Counted from the first letter of the stretch, positions 2,701-53,388 are shown. The stretch: 64,000 nucleotides of DNA from Arhodomonas aquaeolei DSM 8974 (GCF_000374645.1 NZ_KB894801.1:1-64000), one strand, 5' to 3'. The notes: generated from the letters alone by a model not told the origin. Numbers and translations are program-made.

Positions 2701-3726
2701 TCAGTGATCTGTACCGTCGCGGGGTGCGCCCGCCCCGGTCGCCGCCGCGGCATCGTCATGCCCGGCCCCGGAGGGGACATTACCACTACTGCGCCGCCGC
2801 CCGCTCCTGCGTGTGCCGGACTGTGGCTCCGCCAACGCGTTGCTGCCGTCGCGGGCGGCGTAGAGCCAGTCTATGAACACCTTCACGATGGGCGCCGCCC
2901 TCGCCTCGCTGCGGCAGGCGACGTAGAAGCTGTCCACGGCCGGCACGGAGCGGTCGAAGGGGCGGACGAGCACGCCCCGGGAGAGCAGTCCGCTGGCGGT
3001 CATGGTATCGCCCAGGGCCACGCCGTGGCCGAGCACCGCCGCCTCCAGGCCAAGGCGCGCGTCGCTGAGGAAATGATGGGTGCAGCGCCCGGCGAGGTCC
3101 GGGGCATCCAGCGCGCAGAGCCAGGCGTGCCATTCCCGGTGATCGGCGATGTGGAGCATTACGTGCTGTTCGAGGTCCCGGGGCGTGCGTAGCGGTCGGC
3201 TGTTCAGCAGCGTCGGGCTGACCACCGGGAAGAGCTCGAGGTTCGACCACAGCCGCACCCAGCAGTCCGTCAGGTTGCCGTCGCCGTAGAGGATGCAGAC
3301 GTCGTGCTCCGGCGAGTGCACGTTCTGCGGATCGTTGGATGAGGTCAGTGTCAGGCGGACGTCCGGAAACTGCTCGTTGAACTCCCGAATCCGCGGCAGC
3401 AGCCAGAACGAGAGCAGCGCCGGCGTGCAGCTCACCGACAGGTCTCCACGCGTGGAAGGCCGCCGGATCTCCGCCATCGCGGTGGCGATCTCCTCGAACG
3501 CCGAGGATACCGAAGGCAGCAGCCGTGCCCCCTGCGCGGTGAGCTTGAGGCGCTGCGCCTTGCGCTCGAAGAGCTGCACGTCGAGGGATGATTCCAGGGC
3601 GCGGAGCTGGTGACTGACGGCGCCGTGGGTCACGTTGAGCTCCCGCGCGGCCTCGGAGACCGAGCCCCTCCGGGCAGTGGCCTCGAAGGCGCGGAGCGGA
3701 TTCAGCGGGGGTAACCTGGAAGGCAT
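2701..3726 (-). CDS. LysR-family transcriptional regulator (GcvA-like)
   Basis: 341 residues. The N terminus holds the winged helix-turn-helix: the PLNPLRAFEATARRGS start, then SEAARELNVTHGAVSHQLRALE (read as two overlapping halves) and LFERKAQRLKLT. This N-terminal pattern is typical of GcvA-like regulators. A two-lobed effector domain follows. The last 45 or so residues are a low-complexity tail rich in Arg, Gly and Ala that most family members lack. The gene is divergent from the ureohydrolase/ABC operon, and a perfect LysR-type palindrome lies 17 nt upstream of its start, so it very probably controls that operon and itself. The effector is unknown, perhaps the guanidino compound being imported. 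Confidence 0.92.
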   Translation of the reverse strand: MPSRLPPLNPLRAFEATARRGSVSEAARELNVTHGAVSHQLRALESSLDVQLFERKAQRLKLTAQGARLLPSVSSAFEEIATAMAEIRRPSTRGDLSVSCTPALLSFWLLPRIREFNEQFPDVRLTLTSSNDPQNVHSPEHDVCILYGDGNLTDCWVRLWSNLELFPVVSPTLLNSRPLRTPRDLEQHVMLHIADHREWHAWLCALDAPDLAGRCTHHFLSDARLGLEAAVLGHGVALGDTMTASGLLSRGVLVRPFDRSVPAVDSFYVACRSEARAAPIVKVFIDWLYAARDGSNALAEPQSGTRRSGRRRSSGNVPSGAGHDDAAAATGAGAPRDGTDH

Positions 3727-3840: not shown

Positions 3841-3872
3841 GCGGGCCGGCACCGATAGCCTCGGTGGCCCGC
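3841..3872 (+). other. Stem-loop in the leader of the ureohydrolase mRNA
   Basis: GCGGGC (3841-3846) pairs with GCCCGC (3867-3872); inside it, after a 3-nt bulge, CACCGA pairs with TCGGTG around the loop TAGCC. The hairpin ends 21 nt before the ATG. It could affect stability or translation. It does not have the ACGR loops of the guanidine-II riboswitch, so I do not call it a riboswitch. Confidence 0.5.
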
Positions 3873-3893
3873 ACAACATTGAGTGGACGTAAC

Positions 3894-4958
3894 ATGGCCT
3901 GGGATCAGGACAAGCTCGAAGCACTGCGGCAGCGCTACTCGTCCAGCGGCGGTGACGATTTCCACGACCCGCGCTTCAAGCGCGTGGCGGCACAGGTGTT
4001 CGAGGGCGGAAACCGCTCCGCGCCCTATGCCGGGGTGCCCACCTTCCTGGATGCGCCCTACTCGCCCGTCGATCCCGCCAATCCGGACTTCGGCGACCTG
4101 CAGGTGGGCATCGTCGGCGTGCCCATGGATCTGGGTGTGACCAACCGTCCCGGGGCGCGTTTCGGGCCACGGGCGCTGCGCGCCATGGAGCGTATCGGCC
4201 CCTACAACCACGCGCTGGACTGCGCGCCGGTCATGGATCTCCGCGTCGCGGACATCGGCGACGTGCCCATGCGCAGCCGGTACCGCCTGGAGCAGAGCCT
4301 GGAGGATATCGAGGCCTTCCTGGCGAGGCTCGTGGATGCCGGCGTGGTGCCGCTCTCAGCCGGCGGTGACCACTCGATCACGCACCCCATTCTCAAGGCC
4401 GTGGCGCGGCGCCATGGGCCCGTGGGCCTGGTCCATATCGACGCCCACTGCGACACCGGCGGGCCGTTTGACGACACCAAGTTCCACCACGGTGGACCGT
4501 TCCGCAACGCGGTGCTGGACGGCGTCCTCGACCCGACACGCACGATCCAGGTCGGCATCAGAGGTTCCGCGGAATACCTCTGGGAGTTCTCCTACGATGC
4601 GGGTATGACCGTCATCCACGCCGAGGAGGTGCCGGGCATGGGCATCCCCGCGGTGATCGAGCGCGCCCGCGAGGTGGTCGGCGGCGGGCCGGTGTACGTC
4701 TCCTTCGACGTCGACGGCATCGATCCCTCCTTCGCGCCGGGCACCGGCACGCCGGAGGTCGGCGGCCTGAGCTCCCGCGAGGTGCTGGAACTGCTGCGCG
4801 GGCTCAAGGGACTTGAAATCGTGGGCGGCGACGTCGTCGAGGTCGCCCCCGAGTACGACACGACGACCAACACCGCCCACGTCGGTGCCCAGGTGCTCTT
4901 CGAGATCCTGAGCCTGATGGTCTACAGCCCGTCGATGGCGCGTCCGTCGCGGGAATGA
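3894..4958 (+). CDS. Ureohydrolase (agmatinase/guanidinobutyrase-like)
   Basis: A 354-residue arginase-superfamily enzyme that hydrolyses a guanidino compound to urea and an amine. All six metal ligands of the dinuclear site are present: H160 in GGDHS, D183, H185 and D187 in DAHCD, and D272 and D274 in SFDVDGIDP. It is longer than a standard agmatinase, with an N-terminal extension of some 50 residues. The extended FHHGG segment after the DAHCD motif resembles guanidinobutyrase/guanidinopropionase and guanidine hydrolase relatives. It is first in an operon with an ABC importer and an amidase, so the substrate is probably taken from outside the cell. ATG 3894 starts the conserved region; an upstream GTG-type extension is unlikely. 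Agmatine, 4-guanidinobutyrate, guanidinopropionate and guanidine all remain possible. Confidence 0.88.
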   Translation: MAWDQDKLEALRQRYSSSGGDDFHDPRFKRVAAQVFEGGNRSAPYAGVPTFLDAPYSPVDPANPDFGDLQVGIVGVPMDLGVTNRPGARFGPRALRAMERIGPYNHALDCAPVMDLRVADIGDVPMRSRYRLEQSLEDIEAFLARLVDAGVVPLSAGGDHSITHPILKAVARRHGPVGLVHIDAHCDTGGPFDDTKFHHGGPFRNAVLDGVLDPTRTIQVGIRGSAEYLWEFSYDAGMTVIHAEEVPGMGIPAVIERAREVVGGGPVYVSFDVDGIDPSFAPGTGTPEVGGLSSREVLELLRGLKGLEIVGGDVVEVAPEYDTTTNTAHVGAQVLFEILSLMVYSPSMARPSRE

Positions 4959-4995: not shown

Positions 4996-6084
4996 ATGAG
5001 CGACGAAACCAAGAACGGCATCACGCGCCGGGAATTCATCGGCGCCGGTCTGGCGGGGGCGGCGATGCTGTCCATGCCGCCGATCCTGCGGGCACAGAAC
5101 CGGACCCTGAAGGTCGGCGTCTACGGCGGCTACTTCAAGGATTCCTTCGACAAGCACATCTTCCCGGACTTCACCAAGGAGACCGGCATCGAGGTCCAGT
5201 CCGTCGCCGAGCCCACCGGCGAGGCCTGGCTGGTTCAGCTCCAGAACGCCGCCCGTGCCGGCCAGGCCCCGGCGGACGTCTCGATGATGGCCCAGGTGCC
5301 GCGGCTCAAGGGGGCCAATGCGAAGCTCTGGGCACCCCTTGATGCGGCGAAGCTCGACAACCGCAAGTACCTGCTGGATAACTTCGTCCATACCTATGAC
5401 GACGGCAGCATCTCCGGTCTGGGGGCGGTGAGCTGGTACATCACCCTGGTGACCAATACCGATACCTACCCCGAGCCGCCGGAGAGCTGGGCCGCCTTCT
5501 GGGACCCGGCGAACCGCGACAAGCTCGGCCTGCTTGCCCTGGTGAGCAATTCGTTCCTCCTTGAGATCACCGCGAAGACCTTCTTCAACGGCCACGACAG
5601 CCTCAAGAGCGAGGACGACATCCTCAAGGTCCTCGACAAGCTCGCCGAGGTGAAGCCGAACGTGCGTCTGTGGTACCGCGATGAGGGGCAGTTCCAGCAG
5701 GCGCTGCAGAGCGGCGAGATCCCCATGGGCCAGTACTACCACGACGTCACCGGTCTCGCCGCGGCGGACGGCTTCCCGGTGCGCTCGACCTTCCCGAAGG
5801 AAGGCGGCGTGCTCGATTCCGGCTCCTGGTGCGTGTCCAAGGCCTCCAACCGGCTCGAGGAGGCGCACCTGTTCATGAATTACATGTGCCGGCCGGATAT
5901 CCAGGCCAAGCTCGCCCGCCGGGTGGGCACAGCGCCGACGGTCAAGCGCGAGCACCTGGACCTCAGCGACGAGGAGTTCGCCGCGGTGGCCAGCGACAAG
6001 CCCCCGATCCTGCCGTACTACCAGATGTATCTGGATCGTGGCGACTGGCTCTCGGACCGCTGGACGGCGATGATCACCGGATAA
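4996..6084 (+). CDS. ABC transporter substrate-binding protein, Tat-exported, polyamine/spermidine type
   Basis: 362 residues. The N terminus has a twin-arginine signal (TRREFIGAGLAGAAM) ending near a cleavage site after ILRAQ, so the folded protein is exported to the periplasm by Tat. The rest is a type 2 periplasmic binding protein with the LKVGVYGGYF start typical of the PotD/PotF group that binds polyamines and related cations. It is followed by a strong hairpin and then the ATPase and two permease genes, the standard arrangement. Together with the ureohydrolase upstream, it probably captures a guanidino or polyamine-like solute. RBS GGGGAG lies a few bases before ATG 4996. Confidence 0.9.
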   Translation: MSDETKNGITRREFIGAGLAGAAMLSMPPILRAQNRTLKVGVYGGYFKDSFDKHIFPDFTKETGIEVQSVAEPTGEAWLVQLQNAARAGQAPADVSMMAQVPRLKGANAKLWAPLDAAKLDNRKYLLDNFVHTYDDGSISGLGAVSWYITLVTNTDTYPEPPESWAAFWDPANRDKLGLLALVSNSFLLEITAKTFFNGHDSLKSEDDILKVLDKLAEVKPNVRLWYRDEGQFQQALQSGEIPMGQYYHDVTGLAAADGFPVRSTFPKEGGVLDSGSWCVSKASNRLEEAHLFMNYMCRPDIQAKLARRVGTAPTVKREHLDLSDEEFAAVASDKPPILPYYQMYLDRGDWLSDRWTAMITG

Positions 6085-49497: not shown

Positions 49498-49764
49498 ATG
49501 CCACGCGTGTTTCTCGCCGTCCTGCTCCTCGCCTCGGTCGTCGTCCCGGCGTCGGCGGAGACGCTGCTGCTCGACCAGGTCGAGGCGACCAAGGGCGTCG
49601 GTCCGCACAACGGCGTGACCATGGAGACGGTGCGCGAGCGATACGGCGAGCCGCAGACCCGCGAGGGCCCGGTCGGCGAGCCACCGATCACGCGCTGGCA
49701 GTACGACGGCTTCGCCGTATACTTCGAGCGCAACCTGGTGATTCATACCGTCGTCCGCCGCTGA
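49498..49764 (+). CDS. Small exported protein of unknown function (BamE/SmpA-like motif)
   Basis: 88 residues. A cleavable signal peptide (about residues 1-19, ending PASA) is followed by a short domain with GVTMETVRERYGEPQTREGP and GEPPITRWQYDGFAVYFE. The M-x-x-V-x-x-x-Y-G-E-P pattern resembles the repeat of BamE/SmpA-type proteins. There is no lipobox Cys. Its job is unknown. TATAGT (49465-49470) may be its -10. AGGGAG lies 8 nt before ATG 49498. Its end overlaps the convergent acetylpolyamine hydrolase gene by 22 nt. Confidence 0.78.
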   Translation: MPRVFLAVLLLASVVVPASAETLLLDQVEATKGVGPHNGVTMETVRERYGEPQTREGPVGEPPITRWQYDGFAVYFERNLVIHTVVRR

Positions 49765-50783
49765 TCCGGCGCGGGGCCGAGCCCGCGGGCGAAGGCCTCC
49801 GCGTAGCCGGCGAGCCCGGCGACGTCGTACCCCCCTTCCAGCAGGACGAGCACCGGCAGCTCGGTCGCGGCCAGCCGCACGCCGATCGCCTCGAAGTCTG
49901 CCGCCGTCAGCCCTACCGCGGCATCCTGGATGGTGTCCGTCGCCGCGGTATCGAATCCCAGCGACAGGACCACTGCGTCCGGCCGTGTCGCCGTCAGTGC
50001 GGTCAGGGCGTCGTCGAGCTGCGCCAGATAGGCCTCGCCGTCGGTGCCCTCTGCGAGCGTGGCCAGGTGCACGTGTGTCCGCCCGGCGCCGTCCCAGCCG
50101 GCGTCCAGGTGCGGGTAGTTCCGCCACGGGTCGGCGTGCAGCGAGAAGTACGGTGCGGCCTGGTCGGCGAACTCCACGCTGCCGTCGCCGAGGTGGTAGT
50201 CCACGTCCAGCACCGGGCAGTGCCGGCCGGCGGCGGTGAGGGTACGCGCGGCGACGTAGGCATTGTTGTAGAAGCAGTACCCGCCATAGCGCCGGTAGCC
50301 CGCATGATGGCCCGGCGGGCGGCACAGCGCGACGACATGGCCGCCGTGCTCGGCGAGGTGCGCCGCCGCCCGGCGCGCGGTCTCGGCGGAGTCCAGGGCC
50401 GCCTGGCGCGTCGCCCGGGTGATGGGGGTGCCGATCTCGGCGGTGAACATGCCGCCGCGGAAGCGCAGCGGTCCGGCGCTCAGGTCCCCATGGAAGATCG
50501 AGGGGACGTATTCTTCCCCCTCCTCCAGGGTCTCGCCGATCCCGCGGAGGAAGGCGAGGTATTCCGGGGCATGCAGCGCGGCGACGGTTTCCTCGCGGCC
50601 GCCTTCCACGGGATGTTCCGCGAGCGGCCAGGTACGGCCGAAACCGGTCAGGACCTCGCCGATACGCTCGGCCACCTCCGGGTATGGCACCGGCGGGTAG
50701 CCGTCGGAGAAGTCCCAGCGGGGCTGGTGGGCGGCGTGGCGGGCCGGGCGGAAGACCGGTACCGGGGTAACAGGTTCAGTCAT
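49743..50783 (-). CDS. Histone deacetylase-fold amidohydrolase, probably acetylpolyamine amidohydrolase
   Basis: 346 residues. The zinc and charge-relay residues of the class are present: CRPPGHHAG (two His), LDVDYHLGDG (Asp, His), SLGFDT (Asp) and LLEGGYD. The R-W-D-F N terminus and RHAAHQP start are found in the acetylpolyamine hydrolase group. It would remove acetyl groups from acetylputrescine or acetylspermidine in the cytosol. It is the last gene of the polyamine operon, overlapping speB by 8 nt, and this context favours a polyamine substrate over protein lysine. Confidence 0.88.
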   Translation of the reverse strand: MTEPVTPVPVFRPARHAAHQPRWDFSDGYPPVPYPEVAERIGEVLTGFGRTWPLAEHPVEGGREETVAALHAPEYLAFLRGIGETLEEGEEYVPSIFHGDLSAGPLRFRGGMFTAEIGTPITRATRQAALDSAETARRAAAHLAEHGGHVVALCRPPGHHAGYRRYGGYCFYNNAYVAARTLTAAGRHCPVLDVDYHLGDGSVEFADQAAPYFSLHADPWRNYPHLDAGWDGAGRTHVHLATLAEGTDGEAYLAQLDDALTALTATRPDAVVLSLGFDTAATDTIQDAAVGLTAADFEAIGVRLAATELPVLVLLEGGYDVAGLAGYAEAFARGLGPAPDQRRTTV

Positions 50784-51696
50784 AGCTCACCTCGGACTGG
50801 CTGCCCGTGGCGGGCGCCTCGTGGAAGCCCTGCCGGCGGCCCCAGCAGGAGATCATGCGCTGGCTGAGCTTGGCGGCGACCATCTCGGAGACGCAGCTCG
50901 GCTCGGGGACCAGCTCGACAATGTCGCAGCCGCGCAGATCGATGCGCGGGTTGGCGATCAGCGTCTCGACCAGCTCGACGACGTCGTACCAGCCGAGCCC
51001 GCCGGGCTGCGGCGTGCCCACGCCGGGCACCTCCGCCGGACTGAACACGTCCATGTCCACCGTGAGCCATACCGGGCCGTCCAGGCCGGCGAGGCGTTCG
51101 AGCAGCGCCTGCCAGGCGGCCGGACGGTGGAGTGCGCGGTCCCGGTGGCACTCGATGGCGTCGTCGTCGCGCACCCGTGCGGCCTCCTCGTCCATCAGCG
51201 AGCGAACGCCGGCGAGGAGGACGCCGTGCCCGGCCGCGCGGATGTGATGCATCGGGCACGCATGGCTGAGCTCGGTGCCCTCGAAGTGCCGGCGCAGGTC
51301 GGCATGGGCATCCAGGCAGACCACGGTGCCCGGCTCCGGCATGCGTGCCTGCACCAGTGCCGGAGTGATCGAGTGTTCGCCGCCGAGGGCAAGTATCAGC
51401 GGTCCGTCCGGCAACGCGGCCGCCGATCGGGCCAGCCGCCGGTGGTAGTCGACGGCGCGCTCGTAGAGCTGCTTGCCGAGCGGTGGTACCACGCAGATGC
51501 CCATGTGCATGAGCGGTGACCAGTTGCCGTCCTCCTCGAAGTACTCGAGCTGGGCGGTTGCGTCGAGGATCGCCTCGGGGCCGTTACGGGTCCCGGGCTT
51601 GTAGGAGACGGTCTGCTCGTGCGGCACCGGCAGCACGAGGATATCGGCCGTGTCGACCGGGCGGTTCGGGAGGAGCTGGTAACGAAGGTTCGACAT
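50776..51696 (-). CDS. speB: Agmatinase or aminopropylagmatine ureohydrolase
   Basis: 306 residues. Metal ligands lie in LGGEHSIT, LDAHADLR and TVDMDVFSP. It splits agmatine into putrescine and urea, or N1-aminopropylagmatine into spermidine and urea, as in Thermus where speE and speB are also neighbours. It lies 12 nt after speE. It is clearly distinct from the ABC-linked ureohydrolase at 3894, which is longer and has DAHCD and an N-terminal extension. No arginine decarboxylase gene is in the window. Confidence 0.92.
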   Translation of the reverse strand: MSNLRYQLLPNRPVDTADILVLPVPHEQTVSYKPGTRNGPEAILDATAQLEYFEEDGNWSPLMHMGICVVPPLGKQLYERAVDYHRRLARSAAALPDGPLILALGGEHSITPALVQARMPEPGTVVCLDAHADLRRHFEGTELSHACPMHHIRAAGHGVLLAGVRSLMDEEAARVRDDDAIECHRDRALHRPAAWQALLERLAGLDGPVWLTVDMDVFSPAEVPGVGTPQPGGLGWYDVVELVETLIANPRIDLRGCDIVELVPEPSCVSEMVAAKLSQRMISCWGRRQGFHEAPATGSQSEVSYD

Positions 51697-51708
51697 CAGG
51701 TTATATTT

Positions 51709-52581
51709 TCAGGTTGCGGGTTTTTGGAGCTTTTCGTAGATGGAGACCGGCAACGCGAAGGTCGCCGCCAGGCTCGCCGGGCCGGTGGCCGGCAGGGCCA
51801 GCCGGCGGGCGGTGGCGCGCTGCGCGAAGCGCTCCATCGGCAGGGCATCGACATCGGGGAGACGCTCGTCGGAGGCCAGGACGTAGCTCCAGAGGTGGTA
51901 GAAGCTCGGCACCACGATGCCGTAGCTGGAGACGTTGGTGAAGGCGGCGTCGAGCGTCGCGCGCACATGGGCATGGGCCGCGGTGCGGCCGGTGGTCAGC
52001 CCACCGGCCTGGGTCGCGGTGATGGCCCCGGGGTTGAGCCGGCGGCGCAGGCGCTCGTAGAGCTGCCGGCTGTAGAGGGCTGCGGCGGGGTCGTCCGGAT
52101 CGTTGAAGTCGACCAGGTCCCCGATGACGACGTCGAAGCCCTCGCCGGGTTCGTCCAGGAATTCATTGATGTCGCGGCATTGCACGTCGAGCCGCGGGTC
52201 CGCGAATGCGCCGGCGTTCCACCCCGCCAGGTGGGTGCGGCAGAGCTCGACGAACTCGGCATCCATGTCGACCATCACGACCCGGGTGACCCCGGGGTGG
52301 CGCAGCACCTCGCGTGCGGTCGCGCCCTCGCCGCCGCCCATGATCAGGACCCGGCGGGGGTCCGGGTGGACCAGCATCGCGGGATGCACCAGGGCCTCGT
52401 GATAGATCGCCTCGTCCGCCTCGCAGGACTGGATGTCGCCGTCGAGCGCCACGCACACGCCGTGGACCGGCGAACGGAAGAACAGATAGGACTGGAACGT
52501 GGTGCGGCCGGCGGCGATCACCGACTCTGCGGTGTGCTCCACCCAGTCGCCGTCCTCGCTATATTGACCGAAGCTCAGCAT
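51709..52581 (-). CDS. speE: Aminopropyltransferase (spermidine/thermospermine synthase family)
   Basis: 290 residues. The dcSAM site GGGEGATAREVLRH and EAIYHEALVHPAML are family hallmarks. In place of the E. coli ISDCTDP segment it has VIGDLVDFNDPDDPAA, and later ITATQAGG; both resemble the ACL5/thermospermine group. Substrates could be putrescine, agmatine or spermidine. It needs decarboxylated SAM, but no SAM decarboxylase gene is nearby. I chose ATG 52581; TTG 52587 is an alternative. Its start lies inside the end of the GNAT gene (23 nt overlap). Confidence 0.9.
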   Translation of the reverse strand: MLSFGQYSEDGDWVEHTAESVIAAGRTTFQSYLFFRSPVHGVCVALDGDIQSCEADEAIYHEALVHPAMLVHPDPRRVLIMGGGEGATAREVLRHPGVTRVVMVDMDAEFVELCRTHLAGWNAGAFADPRLDVQCRDINEFLDEPGEGFDVVIGDLVDFNDPDDPAAALYSRQLYERLRRRLNPGAITATQAGGLTTGRTAAHAHVRATLDAAFTNVSSYGIVVPSFYHLWSYVLASDERLPDVDALPMERFAQRATARRLALPATGPASLAATFALPVSIYEKLQKPAT

Positions 52582-53185
52582 CCTCAATCCTCACCCTCTC
52601 CGGTATCCGCTCCAGCTGCCCGGTCAGCCGTGGATCCCCGGCCGCCAGACCGTAGCCGTCGATGAAGGCCTGCCGTACCCAGCGGGCGACCGTCGCACCC
52701 GGTATCGCCGTCGCCCACTGCTGGCGTGGGTGGACCATCAGCGCCATCGCCTGGGTGGCCGCCGGATCATCGTAGTGCGGCACGCGGTAGTCCAGCGCCA
52801 GCCGCCGGAAGCCGCAGCGCGCATACAGCCGCGCCGGGCGCGGCTCCGCCTCGACCACTAGCCACGCCCCGGGACCCTCGGTGGCGAACCGCCGGGCCGC
52901 CGCCGTGGCCAGTCGTACGCCGAGCCCCCCGCCGCGCCACCCCGGCGCAATGGCCAGGAACGTCAAGACTGTGCAGCCAAGCCCCGGCGGTACGTCCGCG
53001 ACATAGAATCCGGCGATCCGCCCTTCCGGGTCCGTGAGCCGCTCGCCGCGGTAGCGCCCGGCATCCAGTCGTGCCAGCACCCGGGGCGTGGGCTCGCGCT
53101 CCCACGCCGGGAAGGTCGCCTCGTAGAGCGCCACGAAAGCGTCATCGTGCGGAGCGATCGGTTCCAGGGACGGTTCGGGGGTCAT
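52559..53185 (-). CDS. GNAT-family N-acetyltransferase
   Basis: About 208 residues from ATG 53185. The acetyl-CoA loop is in LAIAPGWRGGGLGVRLA, followed by ARLYARCGFRRL of motif B. The acceptor is unknown. It is the first gene of the operon with speE, speB and the acetylpolyamine hydrolase, so polyamine acetylation is plausible, but a protein or small-molecule acceptor cannot be excluded. The start is uncertain: the frame stays open to 53329, and ATG 53185 has a GGAG only 3 nt upstream. It is divergent from mfd. Confidence 0.8.
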   Translation of the reverse strand: MTPEPSLEPIAPHDDAFVALYEATFPAWEREPTPRVLARLDAGRYRGERLTDPEGRIAGFYVADVPPGLGCTVLTFLAIAPGWRGGGLGVRLATAAARRFATEGPGAWLVVEAEPRPARLYARCGFRRLALDYRVPHYDDPAATQAMALMVHPRQQWATAIPGATVARWVRQAFIDGYGLAAGDPRLTGQLERIPERVRIEDAELRSI

Positions 53186-53388
53186 GGGCTCCGGGTCGGT
53201 CTCGACGAGTGCGTGCCCATCCGCGGGCGACTCCGCCCGGGGACCGGGCGTATGATGCCAGATTCCATCCGCCCCCATAAGGTCCGGCACGGCGTTACGG
53301 CTGGTCTGGTCCGGGCCCATTGAGTACACTCACCGGCCGGTGCCACTCTCGGCAAGCCGCCCAACCGCCAGCGTCCTCGAAGCTCGTC

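What the first reader, a model, noticed from the sequence alone, without database searches (positions are those of the whole stretch)
49743..53185. Polyamine operon with built-in acetylation and deacetylation
GNAT, speE, speB and a histone deacetylase-fold amidohydrolase overlap or nearly touch (23 nt overlap, 12 nt gap, 8 nt overlap). The outer pair could run an acetylation/deacetylation cycle on the polyamines made by the inner pair, to set free polyamine levels, for example under osmotic stress. The four-gene combination would make synthesis, storage as acetyl form, and re-use a single unit.
Basis: inference. Interest (0 to 1): 0.6.

Follow-up and report, generated by a model that had tools for sequence, protein, structure and literature searches.

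The report
Polyamine operon with paired acetyl genes
Four overlapping bacterial genes join a polyamine-making enzyme pair to an acetyl-adding and an acetyl-removing enzyme; the same set recurs in distant bacterial phyla and the acetyl pair is almost always present or absent together, so it is probably a real, apparently undescribed unit for making and reversibly capping polyamines.

Summary
The cassette is not a local accident. It recurs, whole or in parts, in several Gammaproteobacteria, in Sulfurimonas (Campylobacterota), a planctomycete and a myxobacterium. Within the window's order, the same six genomes hold the GNAT and this SpeE type, always adjacent. Across 26 genomes the GNAT and the deacetylase subfamily are both present in 14 and both absent in 9; among 135 Sulfurimonas genomes all four deacetylase carriers are among the five GNAT carriers, even where the two genes lie apart. 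The deacetylase is closest in sequence and predicted fold to acetylpolyamine amidohydrolases. SpeE is nearest to Thermus SpeE and carries the thermospermine-synthase-type motif, so SpeE-SpeB may run the N1-aminopropylagmatine route. The core idea, a polyamine acetylation/deacetylation pair tied to synthesis, is supported genetically. The GNAT substrate, the purpose and the osmotic role are unproven. I rate it a new variant of a known kind. The most novel reading is acetyl as a transient protecting group during synthesis.

The parts
52559..53185 (-). GNAT-family N-acetyltransferase, 208 aa, first gene of the operon; a longer GTG-started frame up to 53329 is open
   Evidence: PF00583, PF13508, PF08445 and PF13673; subfamily alignment A5 with invariant Y21, E31, D184 and others; AlphaFold2 model pLDDT 93.1 with a GNAT fold
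51709..52581 (-). SpeE-type aminopropyltransferase, 290 aa, Thermus / thermospermine-synthase-like, motif GGGEGA (82-87)
   Evidence: PF01564; best solved relative T. thermophilus SpeE 3anx/1uir, 221 bits, then thermospermine synthase 6bq2, 168 bits; D155 and D158 invariant in A1
50776..51696 (-). SpeB-type ureohydrolase (agmatinase / probable N1-aminopropylagmatinase), 306 aa
   Evidence: TIGR01230 agmatinase 180.6 bits, cut-off 174.3; H108, D129, H131, D133, D214, D216 invariant in A6
49743..50783 (-). acetylpolyamine-amidohydrolase-like zinc deacetylase (HDAC fold), 346 aa
   Evidence: PF00850; best solved relatives are all APAHs; 155-RPPGHH-160, D195, H197, D278, Y319 and G118 invariant; the 16 best Foldseek matches of the model are APAHs
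53186..53388 (.). intergenic stretch between the operon and the divergent gene mfd (from about 53389, + strand), the place where an operon promoter would lie
   Evidence: no sigma-70-type match was found there

Best explanation
It is a polyamine operon. SpeE transfers aminopropyl groups from decarboxylated S-adenosylmethionine, probably to agmatine (giving N1-aminopropylagmatine) and perhaps also to spermidine. SpeB removes urea to give spermidine or a longer free polyamine. The GNAT caps a terminal amine of the product with acetyl, and the APAH-type enzyme removes that cap, so the cell can hold part of its polyamine in a neutralised, reversible form. Shown: gene order, enzyme families, intact catalytic residues, recurrence in several phyla, and joint presence or absence of GNAT and deacetylase. 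Inferred: the substrates, the direction of flux, and the purpose (control of free polyamine).
For: Gene order and coupling. Same order in L037 and L038, L127 and L130 and, across contig breaks, J044 (L124 and L183). In 54 genomes of the order the operon-type SpeE (380 bits or more) and the GNAT (over 90 bits) are found in exactly the same six genomes, adjacent in all. GNAT and deacetylase profiles in 26 genomes: both 14, neither 9, GNAT only 1, deacetylase only 2, Fisher p 1.6e-4. 135 Sulfurimonas genomes: 5 GNAT, 4 deacetylase, overlap 4. L126 and L131 share one locus and differ by having or lacking both genes at two separate positions. Deacetylase nearest to APAHs in sequence and model. SpeE nearest to Thermus SpeE, whose enzyme aminopropylates agmatine (PMC11107197). 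The genome has SpeA and SpeD, and no second alanine-racemase-fold decarboxylase besides SpeA and a LysA-length protein was found.
Against: No activity is shown for any protein. The GNAT's acceptor cannot be read from sequence or fold. The deacetylase lacks the PIS motif typical of characterised bacterial APAHs (TIQ here) and has a shorter L2 loop (motif from PMC11532494). Genes are split in Nitrococcus and the myxobacterium. Genome counts are not corrected for relatedness.
Confidence: 0.55

Rival explanations
1. Transient protection: the acetyl group is a temporary cap during synthesis. GNAT caps one end of an intermediate (for example the aminopropyl end of N1-aminopropylagmatine or spermidine) so that SpeE elongates only once or only at the other end; SpeB opens the guanidino end; the amidohydrolase removes the cap at the end. 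The gene order would then be the order of steps.
For: Gene order GNAT-SpeE-SpeB-deacetylase is kept in distant lineages; GNAT and deacetylase are nearly obligate partners, as expected if both are needed for one product; SpeE carries the motif of thermospermine synthases (PMC11107197), so over-elongation is possible.
Against: SpeE-SpeB exists without GNAT and deacetylase in six Sulfurimonas genomes, so the route can run without a cap. No precedent found for this in polyamine synthesis.
Confidence: 0.2
2. Protein switch: as in Bacillus subtilis acuABC, where the GNAT AcuA inactivates AcsA by lysine acetylation and AcuC reactivates it, the GNAT acetylates SpeE, SpeB or SpeD and the HDAC-fold enzyme reverses it.
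For: Known precedent for a GNAT and an HDAC-fold gene in one operon beside their target enzyme (PMC8556138). The GNAT model aligns as well with protein N-acetyltransferases (RimI Z 15.2, Ard1 Z 15.1) as with PaiA (Z 14.8). A characterised APAH can also act on acetyl-lysine peptides (PMC11532494).
Against: The deacetylase is APAH-like, not AcuC-like. Some genomes keep GNAT and deacetylase away from SpeE and SpeB, which neither supports nor excludes this.
Confidence: 0.12
3. Only neighbours: the GNAT acts on an unrelated amine, and the deacetylase scavenges external acetylpolyamines as PA1409 and PA0321 do in Pseudomonas.
For: In the Nitrococcus genus the deacetylase sits by lolC, apart from GNAT-SpeE-SpeB. 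The window genome also has a ureohydrolase beside a polyamine-type uptake protein.
Against: Joint presence and absence of GNAT and deacetylase and recurrence of the cassette in several phyla.
Confidence: 0.13

Closest known systems
Thermus thermophilus SpeE/SpeB route via N1-aminopropylagmatine
   Same: SpeE is nearest in the PDB to T. thermophilus SpeE (221 bits) with the same GGGEGA motif; a ureohydrolase gene follows directly; the genome has SpeA and SpeD.
   Different: No GNAT or deacetylase is reported as part of that route in the papers read; the Thermaceae loci found here had SpeE (with SpeD beside it in L136) without them.
Acetylpolyamine amidohydrolases (Mycoplana ramosa, Pseudomonas PA1409 and PsApaH, Marinobacter subterrani)
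   Same: Closest sequence and fold matches, RPPGHH and EGGY motifs, Gly in place of the Asp/Glu of other HDAC classes, catalytic residues intact.
   Different: About 30% identity; no PIS motif; shorter L2 loop; encoded in a synthesis operon with an acetyltransferase, whereas P. aeruginosa APAHs have no known acetyltransferase partner (PMC4784309).
SpeG / SSAT spermidine N-acetyltransferases
   Same: GNAT fold; SpeG of Vibrio cholerae is among the best Foldseek matches.
   Different: No SpeG model was reached by the window protein; about 15% identity; human GCN5, RimI and Ard1 match as well.
acuABC of Bacillus subtilis
   Same: GNAT and HDAC-fold enzyme encoded together, next to a metabolic enzyme (PMC8556138).
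   Different: AcuC is class I HDAC-like and acts on protein; here the HDAC-fold enzyme is APAH-like.

Membership tests
Acetylpolyamine amidohydrolase (cluster 4 of PMC11532494) | closest by sequence and fold to characterised APAHs | tested here: met
   best five PDB sequences are APAHs; 16 best chains; Z 35.4 to 31.9, next 31.0, so the lowest APAH is tied with the next row
Acetylpolyamine amidohydrolase (cluster 4 of PMC11532494) | catalytic His-His, zinc ligands Asp/His/Asp, Tyr; RPPGHH and EGGY motifs | tested here: met
   H159, H160, D195, H197, D278, Y319, 155-RPPGHH-160, 316-EGGY-319 invariant in A4
Acetylpolyamine amidohydrolase (cluster 4 of PMC11532494) | Gly at the Asp/Glu position of other classes (PsApaH Gly117) | tested here: met
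   G118 aligns with it and is invariant
Acetylpolyamine amidohydrolase (cluster 4 of PMC11532494) | PIS motif at the HDAC10 gatekeeper position | tested here: not met
   TIQ in the window protein; PIQ, GIQ, DIQ, YTQ or YCQ in relatives
Acetylpolyamine amidohydrolase (cluster 4 of PMC11532494) | extended L2 loop and dimer | tested here: inconclusive
   L2 about 7 residues shorter than PsApaH; residues 96-114 have pLDDT under 50; only a monomer was modelled
Acetylpolyamine amidohydrolase (cluster 4 of PMC11532494) | hydrolysis of acetylpolyamines | not testable with these tools
   needs an enzyme assay
Thermus / thermospermine-synthase clade of aminopropyltransferases | hhhhGGGEGA motif and Asp at motif 3 | tested here: met
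   LIMGGGEGA (79-87) and D107 invariant in A1; motif rule from PMC11107197
NCBIfam polyamine aminopropyltransferase equivalogs | score above curated cut-off (TIGR00417 249.55; PRK00811 260) | tested here: not met
   173 and 203.1 bits; matched but divergent
N1-aminopropylagmatine synthase | aminopropylates agmatine | not testable with these tools
   the motif does not separate these from other SpeE (PMC11107197)
Agmatinase (TIGR01230) | score above curated cut-off and six metal ligands | tested here: met
   180.6 bits, cut-off 174.3; ligands invariant
SpeG spermidine N-acetyltransferase | match to the SpeG family model by sequence | tested here: not met
   no NCBIfam family for the window GNAT; one of 13 relatives hits PRK15130 at 2.5e-4 only
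SpeG spermidine N-acetyltransferase | fold | tested here: inconclusive
   SpeG, GCN5, RimI, Ard1 and PaiA all match similarly
acuABC-type protein acetylation switch | HDAC-fold partner of AcuC (class I) type | tested here: not met
   nearest relatives are APAHs

The most novel reading that the evidence does not exclude
A biosynthetic cassette in which acetyl serves as a transient protecting group: GNAT caps an intermediate, SpeE and SpeB build and unmask the chain, and the APAH-type enzyme removes the cap, giving control over which polyamine is made. This would be a protecting-group route in polyamine synthesis that is present in several bacterial phyla.
Probability: 0.2. Interest if true: 0.8.

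Novelty: new variant of a known kind. Interest (0 to 1): 0.55.

Why it matters
Bacterial acetylpolyamine amidohydrolases have been known since the 1990s, but in Pseudomonas no acetyltransferase partner was identified (PMC4784309). Here a GNAT subfamily and an APAH-like subfamily are near-obligate partners, tied to polyamine synthesis, in four phyla. That makes the question of what bacterial acetylpolyamine turnover is for directly testable with named genes, including in cultured Nitrococcus mobilis. If the protecting-group reading held, it would add a new logic to polyamine synthesis.

Tried and rejected
NCBIfam gave no family for the GNAT or the deacetylase of the window. Reading the GNAT acceptor from structure failed: the best VIA match is an uncharacterised protein (3ey5, Z 16.9), then a tie of N-terminal and small-molecule acetyltransferases. 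Glutathionylspermidine synthase (PF03738) was tried as a further partner: it is present in the 11 Sulfurimonas genomes tested but absent from the window genome and its relatives, so it is not part of the cassette here. BioA, adjacent in Sulfurimonas, Thiotrichales and J044, scores as genuine BioA, so I did not count it as a polyamine enzyme. 'Deacetylase only' in G011 is probably an assembly gap: its operon-type SpeB is cut by a contig end. Weak GNAT matches in seven Sulfurimonas (86-100 bits) look like a different subfamily; the two loci read (L185, L186) show another neighbourhood. Literature searches for such an operon found none in the held library; subscription papers are not covered. Promoter and terminator scan found nothing useful.

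Full report
Observation. The GNAT end and SpeE start overlap by 23 nt, SpeE and SpeB are 12 nt apart, SpeB and the HDAC-fold gene overlap by 8 nt. Upstream lies mfd on the other strand; downstream lie a small secreted protein on the other strand, an sfsA-like gene, lolC and lolD (names from my reading of the translations). No terminator-like site was found inside the operon.

What the proteins are. The HDAC-fold protein matches acetylpolyamine amidohydrolases best among all PDB sequences (3men 138 bits, 9gkz 130, 3q9b 118, 6phr 111; the best HDAC6 chain 99). Its AlphaFold2 model (pLDDT 79.6) has APAHs as its 16 best Foldseek matches, E 1e-21 to 5e-19, before P. aeruginosa HDAH at 1e-16; VIA-align gives Z 35.4 to 31.9 for APAHs and 31.0 or less for others, so the lowest APAH is tied with the next row. 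All catalytic residues are intact and invariant in its subfamily. It departs from characterised APAHs in the PIS position and in a shorter L2 loop. SpeE is nearest to Thermus SpeE and has the GGGEGA motif that Li et al. link to thermospermine synthases, a motif that does not separate spermidine/N1-aminopropylagmatine synthases (PMC11107197). The same paper found that 17 of 18 bacterial spermidine synthases aminopropylate agmatine. SpeB passes the agmatinase cut-off and keeps six metal ligands. The GNAT model is confident (pLDDT 93.1), but its acceptor cannot be told. Invariant E29 and E31 (A7) lie between the first two helices; by inference they could bind a cation.

The genome's other polyamine genes. 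There is a 630-aa SpeA-like protein (L199) and an E. coli-type SpeD (L200), two further SpeE-like genes (L080 and, cut by a contig end, L081), a second ureohydrolase at window 3864-4958 next to a polyamine-type binding protein, and three other HDAC-fold genes. The operon is therefore a second, divergent set. In Nitrococcus mobilis (G002), G003, G007 and G009 its SpeB is the only arginase-fold protein found.

Conservation. Within the order, the operon-type SpeE (380 bits or more) and the GNAT (over 90 bits) occur in the same six of 54 genomes, and are adjacent in each. Four genes in order: the window, G004 (L038) and G003 (L037, cut by a contig end inside the deacetylase). In the Nitrococcus genus GNAT-SpeE-SpeB stays beside mfd and the deacetylase stays beside lolC, which suggests that one ancestral stretch was broken between SpeB and the deacetylase (inference). 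The genome-contig scan with the SpeE alignment found 22 loci. Four contiguous genes: Thiotrichales L127 and a gammaproteobacterium L130. All four within a few kilobases: Sulfurimonas L126 and L129 and the planctomycete L137. J044 has bioA-GNAT-SpeE at one contig end and SpeB-deacetylase at another (L124, L183). The myxobacterium has GNAT-SpeE and SpeB-deacetylase on two contigs (L134, L182). Identity to the window proteins in these lineages is 29-44% (GNAT), 52-69% (SpeE), 38-65% (SpeB) and 39-55% (deacetylase), and the distances of the four proteins are correlated (r 0.57-0.83, Mantel p at most 0.0007).

If GNAT and deacetylase work as a pair they should come and go together, wherever they sit. 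In 26 genomes: both 14, neither 9, GNAT only 1, deacetylase only 2 (Fisher p 1.6e-4). One of the two deacetylase-only genomes is probably an assembly gap. In 135 Sulfurimonas genomes, strong matches: GNAT 5, deacetylase 4, all 4 among the 5 (hypergeometric p 3.8e-7). Sulfurimonas L126 and L131 carry the same locus (SpeE, SpeB, glutathionylspermidine-synthase-like gene, PAS-type gene, kinase, regulator); L126 has in addition the deacetylase after SpeB and the GNAT before the kinase gene, L131 has neither. These counts are not corrected for relatedness, many genomes are MAGs, and 22 of the 26 genomes were chosen for holding this SpeE.

Reading. The core is SpeE-SpeB; the GNAT-deacetylase pair is an optional, jointly inherited addition. 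The likeliest meaning is reversible capping of the polyamines made by the core (0.55 for the whole statement). A protecting-group role (0.2), a protein switch like acuABC (0.12) and mere neighbourhood (0.13) remain. Nothing here bears on osmotic stress, and no assay was found for any of the four proteins.

Limits. The genome-contig scan needed one of two short SpeE peptides, so the census is incomplete. Supplementary files and subscription papers were not available, so 'undescribed' means not found in the held library.

Noticed in passing
L125, L128, L131, L139 and others (Sulfurimonas); L127; L124: A genuine bioA lies directly beside the polyamine genes in Sulfurimonas, Thiotrichales and the gammaproteobacterium J044. 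BioA and SpeD both consume S-adenosylmethionine; the reason for the linkage is unknown.
   Followed up: partly
L126:12794-13867, L128:11778-12869, L181:4008-5096: A short glutathionylspermidine-synthase-like protein (about 360 aa) follows SpeB or the deacetylase in Sulfurimonas; it may conjugate the polyamine. Absent from the window genome.
   Followed up: partly
window 3864-4958 and 4996-6084: A second agmatinase-family gene next to a polyamine-type ABC binding protein and a LysR-type regulator (2701-3726, minus strand), probably uptake and catabolism.
   Followed up: partly
genus g2 of the window's family (14 genomes, 1.2-2.2 Mb): None of the small-genome relatives had a SpeE match, and the two tested had no SpeD, which suggests loss of spermidine synthesis.
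   Followed up: no
L119 (G005:C8:28779-29570): An operon-type SpeB (62% identity) in a genome without the operon-type SpeE or GNAT; it may serve as a plain agmatinase there.
   Followed up: no
window 49498-49764: A small secreted protein gene converges on the deacetylase; a similar gene lies at the same place beside the deacetylase in the Nitrococcus genus (L039:7664-8092).
   Followed up: no
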